Source: Deltaproteobacteria bacterium (GTDB lineage: Bacteria; Bdellovibrionota_B; Oligoflexia; Oligoflexales; CAIYRB01). Taken from it: 41,739 nt of DNA. The DNA is taken from assembly GCA_016874735.1 (NCBI GenBank), contig VGTI01000037.1, forward strand, positions 1 through 41,739, in the 5' to 3' direction. Of the stretch, positions 30,500 through 40,438 are shown piece after piece. Position 1 is the first letter of the stretch; the number at the start of each line of letters is the position of its first letter. Below the pieces are notes generated by a model. The model did no database searches, was not told the DNA's origin, and saw nothing but the letters and a program-made list of their open reading frames with translations. The position numbers and the translations under genes were made by a program.

Positions 30500-33103
30500 T
30501 TACCAGGAAGCTGCGTTCACTTGGCTGCTAAGCAGATACATGGGCACCCCACCATCTGATTGTCCAAGAAAACCATCTTTACTTTGGCTGGTAATGATTA
30601 ACCTGGAGTATGCGTCCACAGTCGATGCTAGACCCAGAGTTGGAAAATTTGCCACCCCAGATTGACGAGCGCTTTTCTCGTTGCCATTCTGATCGTAATT
30701 GACTGCAAAAACGTCAGTCGTTCCAGTAGCCACACCACCATTGAGACCACCAGCCGTCTCGCCGACCACTACAACGCCTTGGTTGCCGTTGATTGCTAGA
30801 GATTTTGGAACGGTAATCACACCAGCCGCCCCCCTTTGTCGACTCCAAATCTTAGTCCCATTTCCATCAAGCTTCAAAAGTACAAAATCTGTGGCACCTT
30901 GCTTGGGATTACCGTCAAAACTAGTTGTAGTTTCGCCAGCGATATAAATATTTCCGTCTGGAGATATCCCAGCCCCTCTTAAAACAGCCGCGCTGCCGCT
31001 GGCCCCAAAAGTTTTTGTCCAGGCTTTAGTTCCGCTGGCGTCGTATCGCGTGATGAAAAAATCGGCACTACCAATGCGGACGTTACCGTCTAAAGAACCA
31101 TAGGTAGTGCCTATGATAAAAATATTATTGGATGCATCCGTGATTATGTGTGCCGCTGACGTCGTGAATCCACTGGTACCAATCATTCTGGTCCAGAGCT
31201 TATTGCCATTTGCGTCGAATTTAACCAAATAAGCATCATAGCTCCCTGTGCGCGACACACCATCTAAGTTGCCGTTAGTTCTGCCAGTCACATAAACATT
31301 ACCGCTAGAATCAGACCCGACCGCAAAACAGTAAGTGATCGAAGCTGATACCCCCATCTGCCGGCTCCAGAGTTTACTGCCCGATTTATCGTATTTGACC
31401 ACTAGCAGGTCAAAGGTTCCTGTAAGTGTGTTACCGTCCACAGCGGTATCGGTGTACCCAGCAATCAAAATATTTTCCTGCGGGTCTTTGGCTACACCAA
31501 GCATGTATAGGACTTTCCCAGCAGCGGCCCCAAGCTGCCTTATCCACTGCCTTCTACCCCATCGATCAAATTTAACGAGCATCAGGTCCGCAAAGCTAGA
31601 AAGATTGAAGCCCGGTAAACTTCCAGTAGTATACCCTCCGACATAGATATTGCCCTCTGCATCAGTCACAACACCGCGAGGATCAGTTTTTCTTGGCGCA
31701 ATAAAGCCTCGCTGTATCGTCCTAAGTCTATTGCCGGATGAATCATACTGTATTGCGAGTAAATCTAGCGATCCCGTCAACGTATTGCCATTGAGTCCTG
31801 TATTCACGTATCCGAATAAATAGGACTCGGAATTACTTGCTGCAACGGCTACGCCGTAGGAATCCTTGCCTGATGCACCATTCACTCGTGTCCAAAGTCG
31901 GTTGCCATTCCCGTCGTACTTAACGATGTAAGCATCACGCGTACCAATCTGAGCGTTTCCATCTATCCCACCGCCTGTGCTATAGCCGCTTATGTAGGCC
32001 TCCCCTGATGGGGTCGCTGAAACTCCGTAGGTGTATAAAGACGAACCAAAATTTCCAATTTGCTGCATCCACTGTAAAGTTCCAGCGCTATTGTATTTAA
32101 TGGTCAGGGTATCCTGAACACCGGCCATGGCAACCCCAGCCACTACACCGGTTGTCTCGCCCGTGATATATACATTTGAGGACGAATCAGTTGCGATGGC
32201 TCTTGCTGCTGCCCCGCCAGAATTTGGTCCGTTTAGTCGGGTCCACTGTCTGTTGCCTGCTCCGTCATATTTGGTCACAAAGAACGCATACGAACCGGAT
32301 TTTGTCACGCCGTCCAAATTACCATTGGTCCAGCCGGTGAGATAAAAATTGCCATTCGGATCAATGGCTGCTGCAGTCCCCATAGTTGCACTTCCTGCTA
32401 ATCCAATATGCTTAGCCCACAGCGCGTTACCACTACCGTCAAATTTTGCTATAAAGCCGTCCTGGGTTGTGCCAATCATGGCGGCGCCCTGAATTGACGC
32501 AGAAGTATCCCCACCAATAAATACGTTGCCGCTGCTATCCACGCCAACACCGTAAGCTCTAGTAGTTGCTCCAGAGGTGGCGCCGATCTGCCGTGTCCAT
32601 AATTTGGTGCCAGTAGAGTCAAATTTTGTCACAAAGGCATCGGTAGTTCCAAGTCGCACGTTTCCATCTATACTCCCCGTCGTAAAGCCAGCGATGTAAA
32701 CATTAAAATTTGAATCGATATAAATATGCCTAGGTGATGCGGTGTAAGACAAGTGGCGTGGACCAATTAATCTGGTCCAAATTAGATTGAATCCGCTGTC
32801 ATATTTTGAAATAAATGCATCAAGATTACTGCCAATGACTTGTCCGTCCATATCGGCATTAGTCTCACCGGCTACATAATAGTTGCCATTTGTGTCACGA
32901 GTTATGAATCGTCCGTAAACCGACGATGGACCGACACCGTTGAGCAAAAGCGCCCAGGTCCTAGCCATGCCGGTTGTCGACCAACCGAATCCGTTGTAGT
33001 AACCAGCAGCGATTAGGCCGGGTGATCGTAACAATAAAAAAATCATGACAGCTGCGGCAATAAATCCCGCTACTTTAGTTTTTATTAAAAACCCAGCCCT
33101 CAT
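30500..33103 (-). CDS. Secreted SBBP-repeat beta-propeller protein
   Basis: The protein has 867 residues with an N-terminal signal/anchor (about 8-33). The remainder is about 14 repeats of roughly 57 residues. Each follows the SBBP pattern: a-D-SGN-v-YvaG-T-g-ldG-----G--DafvtKyD--Gn-lWtrq-G. Examples are VDSSGNVFIGGDTSAS, DAFVTKFDSTGTKLWTRQIG and DAYLVKFDANGNKLWTRMIG. Such repeats fold into beta-propellers, here perhaps two seven-bladed ones. The last repeats (13 and 14) are degenerate, and the chain ends NAASW. The start at 33103 has GCGAGAAG upstream. It follows the tail-fibre-like gene by 42 nt on the same strand, so both are probably one operon. Role likely surface binding; inferred. Confidence 0.87.
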   Translation of the reverse strand: MRAGFLIKTKVAGFIAAAVMIFLLLRSPGLIAAGYYNGFGWSTTGMARTWALLLNGVGPSSVYGRFITRDTNGNYYVAGETNADMDGQVIGSNLDAFISKYDSGFNLIWTRLIGPRHLSYTASPRHIYIDSNFNVYIAGFTTGSIDGNVRLGTTDAFVTKFDSTGTKLWTRQIGATSGATTRAYGVGVDSSGNVFIGGDTSASIQGAAMIGTTQDGFIAKFDGSGNALWAKHIGLAGSATMGTAAAIDPNGNFYLTGWTNGNLDGVTKSGSYAFFVTKYDGAGNRQWTRLNGPNSGGAAARAIATDSSSNVYITGETTGVVAGVAMAGVQDTLTIKYNSAGTLQWMQQIGNFGSSLYTYGVSATPSGEAYISGYSTGGGIDGNAQIGTRDAYIVKYDGNGNRLWTRVNGASGKDSYGVAVAASNSESYLFGYVNTGLNGNTLTGSLDLLAIQYDSSGNRLRTIQRGFIAPRKTDPRGVVTDAEGNIYVGGYTTGSLPGFNLSSFADLMLVKFDRWGRRQWIRQLGAAAGKVLYMLGVAKDPQENILIAGYTDTAVDGNTLTGTFDLLVVKYDKSGSKLWSRQMGVSASITYCFAVGSDSSGNVYVTGRTNGNLDGVSRTGSYDAYLVKFDANGNKLWTRMIGTSGFTTSAAHIITDASNNIFIIGTTYGSLDGNVRIGSADFFITRYDASGTKAWTKTFGASGSAAVLRGAGISPDGNIYIAGETTTSFDGNPKQGATDFVLLKLDGNGTKIWSRQRGAAGVITVPKSLAINGNQGVVVVGETAGGLNGGVATGTTDVFAVNYDQNGNEKSARQSGVANFPTLGLASTVDAYSRLIITSQSKDGFLGQSDGGVPMYLLSSQVNAASW

Positions 33104-33145
33104 GACTTCTCGCTTGTCACCAAATTTGGTTTTTCAATCTCGCAA

Positions 33146-36100
33146 TCAGAATCCACTCATCCAACTAATGAGACAAGTCGCAACCCCCGAAATACTTATC
33201 TTCATGATCGAATAGGTACTATATTTACCGCTAATAGTTGGACCGTTGTCAGGAATAAATCTAGCATCTGTACAACCTGAAAACGCGTAGGTCCTCGCTA
33301 CACCATCTGTAATCACCAGCGTGTAAGACCCCCCGTCAACCATGTTACTTAGTGCGATGGTCGAACTTCCCACACTTGAGAGAACCTGCACGTTACCATT
33401 TGCAAAATCGACTGCATTGCCACTCGCCACCGTAGCCTGCACGGACGCAATGGATCCACTCACCTGCAGCCTTGCCCCTGGTGACGCAAGGCCTATCCCA
33501 GCATTTCCCGCACCATCGATTACTAGTCGATTCGCAGCAGCCGTGGCATCCCAAATAGCGAATTTGCCTGCACCGGCGCCGTTTGCAGAGCCATAACTAC
33601 CGAGTATCCAGTCACCCCCACCTGCCGACGTGTTCTTCAACCGCATGGAAGTATCGCTAGTGCTCGATGACTCAAGGCTGAGAGTCTTAGTTGGAGTTGT
33701 GGTGCCGACACCTATATTGCCGCTCGTTGTTATATTCCCGGAGGTGCTCATAGCCGTGCTGCCACCGATAGTGCCAGACATGATCGCTGATCCTGAAACT
33801 TTACCAGCAGTGCTGATGGTAGCTAACTTAGTGTCACTAATTGCAGCCGATGCCGAAATATCAGCGTCTACAATTTGACCGTCTGTGATGTCTCCAGACC
33901 CGATACTCGACAGCGTTGCCAGATTGCCTAGGCCTAGGCTAGCGCGGCCAGTAGCGGCAACCAGCCCCGTCGCTCCACCATCCCATTTGAGCCGATCGGT
34001 AAAAGCAGAGTCCCAGTTAGCAGAATTGTCAGTGATGGTGGTCCATGTGTCGGCAGCGGTGCGTTTTGCCAATCCATTGGTGGTAAGTGATTCGAGCGCA
34101 TTAAGGTCGTTACCTAGCTCCAGAACGATGTTGCCAGAACTTGTCACCGGACTACCACCACTAACTATGATGCCTGCCGCAGGGGCCGTGATTCCAACAC
34201 TGGTCACCGTGCCAGCAAGCGGGGTGGACCAAGTTGCAAGGCCGTCAGCGTCACTCGTCAGTACTTTGCCTGCACCAGGTGCACCACCGCTGATCTTGAC
34301 CGTTCCATTGACGTCCAATTTTGCGGCTGGGGCTGTTGTTCCGATACCGACGTTGCCGGTAGAACTGATCCTCATCTTCTCTGAAAGCGCACCACCGCTT
34401 GATTGGGCCTTAGTCGAGAAGGTCAAGTGAGCTGAAAGAAGTGTGTCGTCTATTGATTGAATCCGGGCTTCAATCGGCTGGGTTTGCGCTGAAGGACCGA
34501 CGCGGAAATCAATTGACCCTCCAGCGCCGCCATTGACGCCGAGATTGGTGATGCTAAGGCGAGGCCCTAGTGCGCCACTTGCAGTGCTGGACACATCAAG
34601 GATCGAACTTGGAGCCGTCGTCCCAATCCCGACGTTGCCAGTCCCTGTTGGTAGTAGTGCTATTGATGTGTTGGCGCTTACACCTTCCAACGTAACCAAG
34701 CCAGAAGCACCATAGCTGAGCTGGCCGTTGGACAAAGCCGAACCATAACGCAACACCCCTGCAACATCGAGCTTCGCGCCTGGCGTAGCAGTTCCTATCC
34801 CGACGTTACCGCCCGAATAGACAAAGTTAGCATCGCCAGTAAGAAGGCCTCCGCTATTGTATTGGATCTGGTTGGCCGCCCCAGCAGCCGCCGCAGTTGG
34901 AGTTGCCCAAGTACCATCACCACGTAAAAACTTGACGTTATCGGTGGCAGCAGGCCCCGGTACGGCGCCAGCAGTACCTGCAGCGGTTCCATTCGCACCA
35001 CCCATGGTTGGCAGGTCTCCGGCGACTAGAGAACGGAAAGTTGGTGCACCGGTACCATTGGTCGGCCCAGCAAACACATAGTTGGCAGTTGTGGTCACTG
35101 CGCCAGTACCGCCATTGGCGACGCCGAGGACGCCAGAATTGATCAGAGATGCACTATGTGCGGGGATATCACTCTCTGTGAGTGCTGCCCAGACCGGAGC
35201 ATTGGCGACACTGCCAGTTCCGGTACTTGATAAGAACTGCCTGGCGGTTGATTGATTGCCTGCGAGCCGTGTATCCGCACCACTAGCTCCCGCATATAAA
35301 ATGTCACCGATTGTAGTCAGTGGCGATAATGCATCGAAAGCAGTCGATGCCGTAGTCGCTCCGGTACCACCGTTAGCTATGGCCACCGTACCGGTAACGT
35401 TCGTGGCGTTTCCGTTTAAATTCGCTGAGATTGTGCCGGCAGCGAAGTTACCCGAGGCATCACGCTTCACAATCGTTGAGGCCGTGCTAGCACTTGTCGC
35501 GGCCAAGGTATCGTTGATTGAGGTGGCGATTGCGGTAGATGTCTTGCCGCCGACTGTCGCGACGGTAGGGTTAGGGAAGTTGCCACCTAGGTCACCACCG
35601 GCAGCGCCGGTGGGAACTAAACCAGACACCCAACTCAATGTTCCTGTACCGTTGGTGGAGAGCACCTGGCCTGCAGTACCGTCCGTACCTGGGAGCTCCC
35701 AGGTGAGCTGAGAGGCAAGCGTGTCAGGTGCTTTGAAGGCGACATAGTTGGTGTTGTCTTTATCGGTTAGTACTAGTTTATTTGCGTTTGTGCTGTTGCC
35801 CTGTACCGTGATGCTTCCTTGAGATGTCACCGTTGATGCCGTGAGTGCTCCGGTAACTGCACTACCAGTCGTATTGATGGTCGTAGAGCCACCGATGCTC
35901 GAGGCGCCGTTGATTGCCGCTCCGGTCAGAGTCTTGTTGCTTAATGTCTCTGTCGCGTCGCGAGTGACCACGGTACCGGAGATCGGAAATGTGGCTGCAG
36001 AGTTTACGCCGGTACCACCGTTAGCAGCACTCAATTGACCAGTCGTGATCTTGCTCGCATCGAGATTAGGAATGTCAGCGCTTTCGAGCGCCTCGCCGCT

Positions 36101-37801
36101 GACCACCTGACCGCTAGCATTGGTAACAACCTTGGCGTAGGTACCGGCGTTACCAACAGTCGCAAGGCTCACGGTAACGGTCCCACTCGCAGGCGAGACT
36201 GCGATGCCGGTGCCTGCAGTAACGCTGTTTACTTTGTTAGAGAACGCTGTGTAGTCAGTGTTAGAAATGAGCCCTGCGGTCACACTAACACCACTAGAGG
36301 CCATGGGGATATTGAGCGTGTGGACGGTGCCAACTGGGGTGAATCCTAGAGTTGTCCCGCTGGTGCTCGTGCCAAAACTCTGCGTGCTTGCAGTGACACC
36401 ACCCAGCTCAGTCAGTCCTGCTCCCGAGATGCCGAGGGCTTTAGCCGTCGCTCCATCCCAGTACTTAATCTCGTTGGTCGAAGTGTTAAACCAGGTTTTC
36501 CCTTTATCCGGAGAACTCGCTCCACCGCCAATTAGCGTCCCCAGCATGAGCGATTCTGATGCATTATCAAATCGCCCTAGACCGAAAGTTTTGTCTGACG
36601 CCAGTCTCAAGTTACCGACATTGGCGAGGGCGTTTCCATTCATGTCGATAGCACCTGACACGGTATCGCCAGCTCTATTGAGTGGTGTGTAGCCTAAAGT
36701 ATTTTGCTTCGCGTTAAACGCCGACCAGTCAGTGGATGAGAGATATCCGTCCGCTGTGTCTGTCGCCAGAGGGATTTTATTCGCAGGTAGTGCCGGTATT
36801 TCACTTGCTGAGATTGTGTCGACGGTGATGACTGCGCCGTTTGAGCTTTGTTTTAAGAACTGCCCTGTCCCGCCCGTTCCGCTGAGGTCAGATCCCGTGC
36901 CACCGCTTGCAAGTGGCAGCACTCCAGTAACAGCGGATGTGCTAGCGAGATTTAAGGCGCCAAATGACGGCACACCACCAGCCGTTGGTACTCTCAACAC
37001 CTGGTCAGCACCGCCTGCTGCAGTGGTGAGCAGATTATTCGCACCGTTACCGAGGACGACACCGTTTGATGTGAAATTGGTGGCGCCGCTACCACCGCTC
37101 GCAACACCGAGAGTGCCGATCACTTCAGTCGCCAGGTTGATGTTGCCCGATGCTGCCGCTGGTAAGCTTGCCGCTACCCACTTGCCGCTCTTGTAAGTAA
37201 GTACTTGGTTCGCCGTGGGCGCCGCACCTGCCTCGGTTTTAGCTGTTAGGTTGGCGGAACTCAGGTCGTCCCACTTCACGCCTCCAGCGCCGTTGCTGAC
37301 GAGCACGCTACCTGATGCTGCGTCTTTCACACCATTGATTCCTAGCCTGCCGCTCGTGGTGTCAAACCCAACGCTCCTATTATCAACAGGGACACGCATA
37401 GCGAGCGGGATGTAGTTAAACTTCTGCCGTGGATAGGTCTTATCTCCCGTCGAGATTTCGATATAGACAGGCTCGCTGCCGTCTCGGAATATTTCCTGTA
37501 CCTGCGTGGCCATAAACGGGAAGTACAGGGTGAAGACGCCTTGGCTCAGAAATACACTGGCAAACTCGAAGGTCTGCCCGAGCTTAGTCCCATCGAATTC
37601 TGCCGTCCAAAACGTCGCCTCCATGGCGACTGGCCCCACTTTGGGGGCACCAGAGGATTCCGTGAGCCTTCCCGAGTACGTCATTGGTAGACTGCCGGCT
37701 CCCTGCGCCTGGGCTGCAGTCGTCATGCCGATGCTAATCAGAGCCGCCAGCACTGCCAGTGCTCCAGTAGTCGCGGAGGTTTTTAAACCCCGGATGCCCA
37801 A
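33146..37801 (-). CDS. Giant secreted tail-fibre-like adhesin
   Basis: The protein has 1551 residues. The start is TTG 37801, supported by GAGGGGG at good spacing. A Sec signal (cleavage near AAQAQG, about residue 33) shows export, unlike phage fibres. Residues about 37-140 form the conserved head seen in such bacterial fibres (MTYSGRLTESSGAPKVGPVAMEA... TYPRQKFNYIPLAMRV; shown in parts). The shaft is low-complexity Ser/Thr/Gly/Ala with phage-fibre motifs: several GGTG units (LASGGTGSDL, AANGGTGVNS, IANGGTGATT, GVANGGTGAV) and five VGIGT-x-x-P-x-x-x-LDV units (for example NVGIGTTAPAAKLDV). The tip (about 1480-1551) ends CLISWMSGF. No intramolecular chaperone (S74) is visible. It resembles the fibre proteins of Bdellovibrio and relatives. 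Confidence 0.85.
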   Translation of the reverse strand: MGIRGLKTSATTGALAVLAALISIGMTTAAQAQGAGSLPMTYSGRLTESSGAPKVGPVAMEATFWTAEFDGTKLGQTFEFASVFLSQGVFTLYFPFMATQVQEIFRDGSEPVYIEISTGDKTYPRQKFNYIPLAMRVPVDNRSVGFDTTSGRLGINGVKDAASGSVLVSNGAGGVKWDDLSSANLTAKTEAGAAPTANQVLTYKSGKWVAASLPAAASGNINLATEVIGTLGVASGGSGATNFTSNGVVLGNGANNLLTTAAGGADQVLRVPTAGGVPSFGALNLASTSAVTGVLPLASGGTGSDLSGTGGTGQFLKQSSNGAVITVDTISASEIPALPANKIPLATDTADGYLSSTDWSAFNAKQNTLGYTPLNRAGDTVSGAIDMNGNALANVGNLRLASDKTFGLGRFDNASESLMLGTLIGGGASSPDKGKTWFNTSTNEIKYWDGATAKALGISGAGLTELGGVTASTQSFGTSTSGTTLGFTPVGTVHTLNIPMASSGVSVTAGLISNTDYTAFSNKVNSVTAGTGIAVSPASGTVTVSLATVGNAGTYAKVVTNASGQVVSGEALESADIPNLDASKITTGQLSAANGGTGVNSAATFPISGTVVTRDATETLSNKTLTGAAINGASSIGGSTTINTTGSAVTGALTASTVTSQGSITVQGNSTNANKLVLTDKDNTNYVAFKAPDTLASQLTWELPGTDGTAGQVLSTNGTGTLSWVSGLVPTGAAGGDLGGNFPNPTVATVGGKTSTAIATSINDTLAATSASTASTIVKRDASGNFAAGTISANLNGNATNVTGTVAIANGGTGATTASTAFDALSPLTTIGDILYAGASGADTRLAGNQSTARQFLSSTGTGSVANAPVWAALTESDIPAHSASLINSGVLGVANGGTGAVTTTANYVFAGPTNGTGAPTFRSLVAGDLPTMGGANGTAAGTAGAVPGPAATDNVKFLRGDGTWATPTAAAAGAANQIQYNSGGLLTGDANFVYSGGNVGIGTATPGAKLDVAGVLRYGSALSNGQLSYGASGLVTLEGVSANTSIALLPTGTGNVGIGTTAPSSILDVSSTASGALGPRLSITNLGVNGGAGGSIDFRVGPSAQTQPIEARIQSIDDTLLSAHLTFSTKAQSSGGALSEKMRISSTGNVGIGTTAPAAKLDVNGTVKISGGAPGAGKVLTSDADGLATWSTPLAGTVTSVGITAPAAGIIVSGGSPVTSSGNIVLELGNDLNALESLTTNGLAKRTAADTWTTITDNSANWDSAFTDRLKWDGGATGLVAATGRASLGLGNLATLSSIGSGDITDGQIVDADISASAAISDTKLATISTAGKVSGSAIMSGTIGGSTAMSTSGNITTSGNIGVGTTTPTKTLSLESSSTSDTSMRLKNTSAGGGDWILGSYGSANGAGAGKFAIWDATAAANRLVIDGAGNAGIGLASPGARLQVSGSIASVQATVASGNAVDFANGNVQVLSSVGSSTIALSNMVDGGSYTLVITDGVARTYAFSGCTDARFIPDNGPTISGKYSTYSIMKISISGVATCLISWMSGF

Positions 37802-39078: not shown

Positions 39079-39840
39079 CTACTGATAGATTGGAGAACGC
39101 CGGAGTTCCCCAACTAATTCTCTCATTTGTACTTGAAAGACAGAAAACAGCCCTTCTAGCTTTGCTCGTGGCATTAGTGGACTAAGTTGCTCAAGAAATA
39201 TGAGTTCAGTAGCCTGATTAACAGCTACATCGAGTTGACGAAGAAACTCGTCCATAGTCATCGATTTAGTCTTTTTCAAAGTGGGAAGTCGGCTGTTGAT
39301 ACTCCTCAGTCTGCTTTTCAGAACGTCGGCGTTGGGCATTGTTTTGACATTCACATACCAGTAGTAACAGTCGTAAAGGTCTCTCATCAGCCTGCGCTCG
39401 TTCCAGGCTGCGAGCTTATGGGCAAAAGCTACATCGTTTGACATGACGCGGATAATGCGCGGGAGCGCACCCACCTTTTGAGCCAGCAGCTGGGTGGTTA
39501 GAGTTGTCGAAGGCATGCTTTCGGCTACGTTATATTCAATCTGAATCTCTGCTCTGCCTGCTCTCACAAGGTAGCGTCCAGAATTGGAGTGGAACGATTT
39601 CCGAATTAATGCTCCTGGTATTTTAGCGAGTATTCTGTCGACACCTGGCTCAATTTCTTTTTTCGAGGCAAATGGGCTGAAAACATAGTCGAGATCATTA
39701 GTCGCTCTGTCGCTGCTGAGCAGCATGAGTTGCATACCCCCCTTCAATAGAGCGTGGTCCCTGAATTCTTCAGCAAACTGATGGATAATCCAAAGCATGA
39801 GAACGTCGTTTGATATCTGGTCTCGCTCAGGTAGCTGCAC
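39079..39840 (-). CDS. AbiEii-type nucleotidyltransferase toxin
   Basis: The protein has 253 residues. The nucleotidyltransferase signature is LLKGGMQLML...DRATNDLDY with the metal-binding Asp pair (about Asp49, Asp51), followed by the conserved helix DVAFAHKLAAWNERRLMRDLYDCYYW. AbiEii/MenT-like toxins transfer nucleotides to tRNA or other targets and stop growth or phage propagation. GTG 39840 has AAGGGG upstream and starts 14 nt inside the end of the antitoxin gene, the standard arrangement for this type IV toxin-antitoxin family. Both genes look intact. The target is not predictable from sequence. Confidence 0.86.
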   Translation of the reverse strand: MQLPERDQISNDVLMLWIIHQFAEEFRDHALLKGGMQLMLLSSDRATNDLDYVFSPFASKKEIEPGVDRILAKIPGALIRKSFHSNSGRYLVRAGRAEIQIEYNVAESMPSTTLTTQLLAQKVGALPRIIRVMSNDVAFAHKLAAWNERRLMRDLYDCYYWYVNVKTMPNADVLKSRLRSINSRLPTLKKTKSMTMDEFLRQLDVAVNQATELIFLEQLSPLMPRAKLEGLFSVFQVQMRELVGELRRSPIYQ

Positions 39841-40438
39841 ACATCATCCCCTTGGCAAATTCGACGAACTTAGGATTTTTGTATTGTTGAAGGTAGAGCA
39901 GAAACTTTTCCTGGTTGATATATCCCCAATTAACATCGTTATAGACGTCAAAAGGAAATTGAATACCGTGCTGATGAAAATATAGGGTGTCCAGGAGTGC
40001 CTTCTCAGGCGTCGCTTTGCGAATTCCTCGAATTGTTTCGTAGCCGAAAAGAAGATGATCAACTGATCCCAGATGCCTTACTGTCCAGGACGGTCCAACG
40101 TATGTTTTGGATCGCCCTAGTTTGAAGGCATCGATCTGATTCCTGGGCAAAATGCCGATGATCAGATGTTCCGCCAGTATGTTTCCGAAGCTAACGTAGG
40201 ACTCCGGACATATTTTTTGGCTCAACACCTGCGCGTCAAATTGCTGAGTGACATAGATTCCCTTTATGAACCTATGCAATGTGCCGGCGCTCTCTAAATG
40301 TGCGATCCGACGATACGTGGCAGTCTTGTGCGACTCGGCGAATAAGGTCGCTAATTCGGAGAATAGGAACACCCCGCCCAAAGTCGGGCTGTATTTCTGA
40401 ATTAAGATACTGTCTTCAATGAACTTTTTCATAGGCAT
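39827..40438 (-). CDS. AbiEi-type antitoxin / transcriptional regulator
   Basis: The protein has 203 residues. An N-terminal winged-helix region (FLFSELATLFAESHKTATYRRIAHLESAGTLHRFIKGIYV) precedes the AbiEi core (YVSFGNILAEHLIIG, TVRHLGSVDHLLFGYETIRGIRKATPEKALLDTLYF). The signature TPEKALLDTLY is characteristic. AbiEi proteins bind inverted repeats in their own promoter and neutralise the toxin. Met1 (40438) has no ribosome binding site; Met3 (40432) is an alternative start, and the promoter geometry suggests a leaderless mRNA. Base composition is more AT-rich than most of the window, consistent with acquisition. Confidence 0.85.
   Translation of the reverse strand: MPMKKFIEDSILIQKYSPTLGGVFLFSELATLFAESHKTATYRRIAHLESAGTLHRFIKGIYVTQQFDAQVLSQKICPESYVSFGNILAEHLIIGILPRNQIDAFKLGRSKTYVGPSWTVRHLGSVDHLLFGYETIRGIRKATPEKALLDTLYFHQHGIQFPFDVYNDVNWGYINQEKFLLYLQQYKNPKFVEFAKGMMCAAT

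What the first reader, a model, noticed from the sequence alone, without database searches (positions are those of the whole stretch)
30500..37801. Secreted tail-fibre-like giant plus SBBP propeller as a surface-fibre operon
The 1551-residue protein has phage-fibre shaft motifs but a bacterial signal peptide and no phage genes around it. It resembles the Mosaic Adhesive Trimer fibres described in Bdellovibrio. The gene 42 nt downstream encodes an exported propeller of about 14 SBBP repeats. A fibre plus a propeller cap or receptor would be an unusual adhesion pair.
Basis: partly seen in the sequence, partly recalled or inferred. Interest (0 to 1): 0.75.

Follow-up and report, generated by a model that had tools for sequence, protein, structure and literature searches.

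The report
Surface fibre with swappable cap protein
A bacterium that encodes dozens of phage-like surface fibres appears to tip one class of them with a separately made, interchangeable sticky protein encoded by the next gene; in this window that cap is a beta-propeller, and in other copies it is a lectin-like, fibrinogen-like or glycine-rich protein.

Summary
A 1551-aa secreted, phage-fibre-like protein (33146-37801, minus strand) is followed 42 nt later by an exported 867-aa SBBP protein of about 14 repeats. The fibre is one of 47 head-bearing fibre genes in this genome, a mosaic of modules shared with them, and its shaft matches five Bdellovibrio MAT crystal structures (best E 6.6e-17). The propeller is not conserved: none of six genus/family relatives has it, so the literal pair is not an ancient unit. 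What is conserved is the slot. Fibres ending in this tip class (a phage tail-fibre C-terminal fold; pLDDT 92.5) carry a close, co-directional, signal-peptide-bearing gene downstream: 14 of 15 in relatives against 0 of 16 fibres with other tips (p=5.7e-8). The downstream proteins differ entirely (propellers, Gly-rich, fibrinogen-like, LamG, fn3, Cys-rich). Unrelated ones still share a short mature N-terminus, and that segment, not the body or signal peptide, tracks the tip (partial Mantel r=0.37, p=2e-4). Where the tip is internal (two fibres) there is no cap gene. I conclude that a conserved docking tip probably carries a swappable secreted cap, working like T-even gp37/gp38. Docking, trimerisation and surface location are inferred, not shown.

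The parts
33146..37801 (-). Fibre gene, 1551 aa, TTG start
   Evidence: the start aligns with the GTG start of the C38 paralogue
37700..37801 (-). Signal peptide of the fibre (about aa 1-33, AQA|QG)
   Evidence: inspection of the sequence
37382..37696 (-). Conserved N-terminal head domain (aa 36-140), present 47 times in this genome
33440..37381 (-). Mosaic shaft (aa 141-1454): successive blocks are closest to different paralogues
34196..34432 (-). NVGIGT capping-loop segment (aa 1124-1202) homologous to the MAT beta-helix of Bd2133, Bd1334 and three others
33149..33439 (-). C-terminal tip (aa 1455-1551), tip class 0, proposed cap-docking domain; phage tail-fibre C-terminal fold
33104..33145 (-). 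42-nt spacer, no terminator-like site; contains the palindrome ACCAAATTTGGT
30500..33103 (-). Cap gene, SBBP beta-propeller protein, 867 aa
33008..33103 (-). Signal peptide of the cap (aa 1-32), no lipobox cysteine
   Evidence: inspection
32963..33007 (-). Proposed docking anchor, mature N-terminus AGYYNGFGWSTTGMA
   Evidence: low-confidence, non-propeller in the model
30524..32962 (-). SBBP repeat region, 58-aa period, about 14 blades

Best explanation
The two genes form one adhesive device. The fibre is exported, stays at the cell surface by its conserved head, and trimerises along a beta-prism/beta-helix shaft (inferred from MAT homology). Its last ~97 residues are a docking tip. The downstream gene makes a secreted cap whose first ~15 mature residues (here AGYYNGFGW...) plug into the tip, so the cap body, here an SBBP beta-propeller, is the receptor-contacting end. 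Because only the anchor has to fit the tip, cap bodies can be exchanged between loci or acquired from outside, giving a repertoire of specificities on a common fibre. Shown: the gene slot, its association with terminal tip class 0, the diversity of caps, the shared N-terminal segment, tip-anchor covariation, and a phage-type tip fold. Inferred: physical docking, stoichiometry, surface display, ligand binding.
For: (1) Slot: a co-directional, signal-like next gene within -60..+180 nt follows 23/24 tip-0 fibres against 6/38 others, p=1.6e-10; with tandem fibres and one HlyD-like neighbour not counted as caps, relatives 14/15 against 0/16, p=5.7e-8, own genome 8/9 against 4/22. The tip class was defined before the neighbours were examined (then 41, 48). 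(2) Caps are unrelated: SBBP, another propeller, Gly_rich_2, Fibrinogen_C, Laminin_G_3, fn3, Big_9. (3) Their mature N-termini resemble each other: 14/22 rank in the top 5% of 326 control secreted proteins, 10/13 after one per homology group; the best-scoring control was a second cap in tandem at C72. (4) The anchor follows the tip when body is controlled for (r=0.37, p=2e-4); the signal peptide does not (r=0.10, p=0.12); across cap families tip~anchor r=0.31, tip~body -0.04. (5) Two fibres with tip 0 internal have no cap gene. (6) The same adhesive domain occurs fused in another fibre: C46 ends in Fibrinogen_C, 7.5e-37, and in trans at C72, C2 and C50. (7) The tip fold matches phage tail-fibre C-termini; five of the six phage fibres inspected, which carry a C2-like tip at their C-terminus, are followed at -34..+11 nt by diverse genes. 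(8) Precedent: S16 gp37 trimer capped by gp38.
Against: No complex was modelled or measured. The shared N-terminal segment is short, cleavage sites were assigned by eye for part of the analysis, and several caps (C235, C50, C71) do not score above controls. One own-genome tip-0 fibre (C11:12685) and one in G001 lack a cap. The window's cap is unique to this genome, so its fit to this tip rests on the family pattern plus the YYN motif shared with C25 and G010:C955. The propeller model is of modest confidence (pLDDT 60). The four own-genome non-tip-0 positives show that a secreted neighbour alone is not proof.
Confidence: 0.68

Rival explanations
1. Two independent secreted adhesins sharing a transcript: the SBBP protein acts on its own at the surface, and gene order reflects co-regulation only.
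For: Short spacer without a terminator; SBBP proteins exist without fibres in many phyla; signal peptides on both.
Against: Does not explain why caps follow only one tip class and only when it is terminal, or why tip and cap N-terminus covary independently of the cap body.
Confidence: 0.17
2. The downstream proteins are assembly chaperones for the tip, like phage Tfa or T4 gp38.
For: Position directly after the fibre gene, as for phage tail-fibre chaperones (established knowledge).
Against: A chaperone for a conserved tip should itself be conserved; these proteins range over propellers, fibrinogen-like, fn3, LamG and Gly-rich folds, typical binding modules, and carry signal peptides.
Confidence: 0.06
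3. Chance insertion of a foreign SBBP gene behind a fibre, with no functional link.
For: SBBP gene lower in GC (48%) than the fibre (55%), single copy, absent from congeners.
Against: It occupies the slot filled by other caps at 22 tip-0 loci and carries an anchor-like N-terminus (rank p 0.015). Foreign origin fits a swapped cap equally well.
Confidence: 0.09

Closest known systems
Mosaic adhesive trimer (MAT) superfamily of Bdellovibrio bacteriovorus (Caulton et al. 2024, PMC10769870)
   Same: Secreted fibres with a conserved N-terminal domain, NVGIGT capping-loop shaft homologous by sequence to five solved MAT structures, exchanged C-terminal tips, many copies per genome (47 heads here, 21 in HD100).
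   Different: Tip class 0 was not matched to any solved MAT tip by sequence or Foldseek, and part of its function seems moved to a separate downstream protein; the MAT paper's main text has no mention of operons, adjacent genes or propellers. Homology of the head to the Bdellovibrio head could not be tested.
T-even/S16 phage long tail fibre gp37 with tip adhesin gp38 (PDB 6F45; PMC6851490)
   Same: Trimeric fibre ending in a dock, separate receptor-binding cap that determines specificity; Gly-rich caps occur in both.
   Different: Here chromosomal and secreted by signal peptides; caps are many unrelated folds; no sequence match to 6F45 was listed; gp38 attaches by a helical domain with three tryptophans, here a short N-terminal segment is proposed.
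Phage tail-fibre C-terminal beta-sandwich domains (PHROG tail-fibre families; Pa223 capsid spike 9ny6)
   Same: Fold of the tip; in five inspected phages a diverse gene also follows directly.
   Different: The window tip itself finds no phage homologue by tblastn.
LipL53-family SBBP lipoproteins (NF047494) and the CylK propeller
   Same: SBBP beta-propeller repeats.
   Different: No lipobox cysteine; 14 rather than 7 blades expected; encoded behind a fibre.

Membership tests
MAT superfamily | Signal peptide followed by a conserved ~130-aa beta-rich domain | tested here: inconclusive
   Signal peptide and a conserved head of ~105 aa are present (47 copies); homology to the Bdellovibrio head could not be tested, since no Bdellovibrio genome was identified among the relatives.
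MAT superfamily | Beta-helix shaft with capping-loop motif | tested here: met
   aa 1124-1202 match 8ond 6.6e-17, 8oml, 8ol4, 8ojn, 8on4.
MAT superfamily | Mosaic: conserved N-terminal end, exchanged tips | tested here: met
   28 complete fibres fall into 20 tip clusters; block mosaicism of the window fibre.
MAT superfamily | Trimeric fibre | not testable with these tools
   Only monomer prediction was available.
MAT superfamily | Surface display and relocation during predation | not testable with these tools
   Needs microscopy.
S74 MAT subgroup | C-terminal Peptidase_S74 domain | tested here: not met
   No PF13884 in the window fibre; two other fibres of this genome have it.
gp37/gp38 fibre-tip adhesin | Adhesin encoded directly after the fibre, only with the matching dock | tested here: met
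gp37/gp38 fibre-tip adhesin | Homology to gp38 or polyglycine sandwich | tested here: not met
   The window cap is an SBBP propeller with no match to 6F45; some other caps are Gly_rich_2.
gp37/gp38 fibre-tip adhesin | Physical attachment of cap to fibre tip | not testable with these tools
   Covariation only.
LipL53 SBBP lipoprotein | Lipoprotein signal | tested here: not met
   Score above cut-off (432 against 400) but no cysteine in the signal region.

The most novel reading that the evidence does not exclude
A chromosomal adhesion system in which a phage-derived docking tip on a MAT-like fibre presents interchangeable secreted caps of unrelated folds, with a short N-terminal anchor that coevolves with the tip and lets any binding domain, including beta-propellers, be plugged onto the fibre.
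Probability: 0.6. Interest if true: 0.85.

Novelty: new variant of a known kind. Interest (0 to 1): 0.74.

Why it matters
MAT fibres are so far known with covalently fused tips. A trans-acting cap would explain how one fibre scaffold gains new specificities quickly, and would give a natural plug-and-socket pair (tip plus ~15-residue anchor) for displaying arbitrary domains. It also predicts from sequence alone which orphan secreted proteins are fibre tips, and suggests that many unannotated genes behind phage tail fibres with this tip fold are receptor-binding caps. All of this is testable with two small proteins.

Tried and rejected
Prophage remnant: no phage genes among neighbours. Conserved fibre-propeller pair: rejected, the SBBP gene is absent from six relatives. 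Synteny of the locus in relatives: flanking genes are not conserved enough to locate an empty site. It is probably Oligoflexia-like, judged from genome sizes and the order pattern only. First attempts at the N-terminal motif test failed on program options and were replaced by an alignment-score test. Propeller model too weak (pLDDT 60) for a fold search.

Full report
Observation. Two minus-strand genes sit as described: an 867-aa protein (30500-33103) and, 42 nt upstream of it, a 1551-aa protein starting at TTG (33146-37801). No terminator-like site lies in the spacer. The small protein has twelve Pfam SBBP stretches (E 8.9e-67) and a 58-aa period giving about 14 blades; its nearest solved sequences are CylK propellers (8.5e-54). 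The NCBIfam LipL53 model scores above its cut-off, but there is no lipobox. The large protein has GGTG and NVGIGT fibre motifs.

The fibre is one of a huge family. Its head (aa 36-140) occurs 47 times in this 4.65-Mb genome, 5 to 36 times in five congeners and about 26-30 times in one genome of another family. Complete members run from about 800 to 2244 aa, with giants of 4701, 12490 and at least 15097 aa. The 28 complete fibres fall into 20 tip clusters. Tiling the window fibre shows that successive blocks are closest to different paralogues, often out of register: C38/C50/C11 for the head, then C41, C147, C41, C11, C85, C132, C69/C12/C51, C129, C25. The shaft segment aa 1124-1202 matches five B. 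bacteriovorus MAT crystal chains (best 8ond/Bd2133, 6.6e-17). It works like a MAT fibre; whether its head is homologous to the Bdellovibrio head could not be tested.

The propeller is not a conserved partner. It is single-copy here and absent from all five congeners and the one same-family genome.

The slot is conserved. The window fibre belongs to the largest tip cluster, defined before neighbours were looked at. In the own genome, six of that cluster's seven fibres have a secreted-looking gene right behind them (the seventh, C11, has an HlyD-like gene 177 nt away). I then searched relatives with the tip profile, fetched tip-0 loci and control fibres and scored the next gene. With tandem fibres and the HlyD-like neighbour not counted as caps, relatives give 14 of 15 tip-0 fibres against 0 of 16 controls (p=5.7e-8) and the own genome 8 of 9 against 4 of 22 (p=5e-4) (cruder count, p=1.6e-10, median gap 8 nt). 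One relative's cap (G005:C91) was missed by the simple gene caller and added by hand after reading the three frames. Two fibres with tip 0 internal rather than terminal have no cap gene.

Caps are unrelated to each other: SBBP propeller (window), another propeller type (C10, G002:C235, G002:C97), Gly_rich_2, Fibrinogen_C, Laminin_G_3, fn3, Big_9, cysteine-rich repeats. Tips 60-71% identical can carry caps with only 10-25% identity. Adhesive domains of the same kinds also occur fused to other fibres of this genome, such as Fibrinogen_C ending C46 (7.5e-37) and an FGE-sulfatase-like domain ending C41.

A shared anchor. Right after the predicted signal cleavage, caps of different families resemble each other: QFNAGMFVRAP, QFNALMFMKTQGPNAP, QFGSHVGVFFKTQGPNAP, QTPWFGVFIKNSGPN, QFRGLFVRDSSPAP, and the YYN type AGYYNGFGW (window), AGYYNLQGFLIRR (C25), SYYNRGFFADR (G010:C955). 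With whole homology groups left out, 14 of 22 rank within the top 5% of 326 control secreted proteins, and 10 of 13 with one per group. The best-scoring control turned out to be a second, fibrinogen-like cap in tandem at C72. Tip similarity correlates with anchor similarity after removing body similarity (r=0.37, p=2e-4), not with signal-peptide similarity (r=0.10, p=0.12); across cap families tip-anchor r=0.31 and tip-body -0.04. The window's nearest tip is C25 (48%), whose cap body is Gly-rich rather than a propeller.

Tip structure. The tip is predicted with pLDDT 92.5 as an all-beta domain. Foldseek finds 122 phage proteins at E<=1e-3, among them tail-fibre C-terminal domains (TM up to 0.76), and a phage capsid spike in the PDB (E 1.5e-3). 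In six phage records found with the C2-type tip, five fibres end in that domain and are followed at -34 to +11 nt by diverse genes; in the sixth (Manatee Spring phage, +24 nt) the annotated C-terminus looks different. The cap model is weak (pLDDT 60) but shows regular propeller strands over aa 62-814 and no structure at the anchor.

Mechanism and status. The best reading is a plug-and-socket fibre tip, functionally like S16 gp37/gp38, where one gp38 caps a gp37 trimer (PMC6851490). The genomic pattern, cap diversity, anchor resemblance and covariation are shown by computation. Docking, trimerisation, surface display and receptor binding are inferred. The lower GC of the SBBP gene (48% against 55%) and its absence from relatives fit recent capture of a foreign propeller as a cap.

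Noticed in passing
own genome C18:3-45293 (-), C20:13984-51453 (+), C34:17632-31734 (+); G005:C24, G005:C69: Giant open frames of at least 15097 (cut by contig end), 12490, 4701, 9481 and 4693 aa that begin with a diverged MAT-like head and carry up to 75 GGTG motifs.
   Followed up: partly
own genome C72:2531-3379 (-) (locus L122): A second fibrinogen-like cap in tandem behind the first one, picked out by its anchor motif.
   Followed up: partly
own genome C85:3025-6858, C12:12963-15980, C69:11936-15517, C14:10120-11199: Fibre frames whose C-terminus turns into scrambled sequence within repetitive regions: frameshifts, phase variation or assembly error.
   Followed up: no
own genome C39 (L110) and G002:C141 (L200): Fibres in which tip class 0 is internal and followed by another shaft piece and a different tip, without a cap gene.
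   Followed up: yes
own genome C49:7971-14702 (L112): Fibre ending in Gp34_trimer and Shufflon_N-like domains; possible tip inversion system, not examined.
   Followed up: no
window 33104-33145: 12-bp perfect palindrome ACCAAATTTGGT in the fibre-cap spacer.
   Followed up: no
window 39079-40438: AbiEii-like toxin gene and a weakly AbiEi-like gene next to the fibre locus.
   Followed up: no
phage records MZ892991, OR003941, PP438425, NC_070974, MW514246 (L260, L262-L265): Phage fibres ending in a related tip are followed at -34..+11 nt by diverse genes with short hydrophobic N-termini; possibly the same docking principle.
   Followed up: partly
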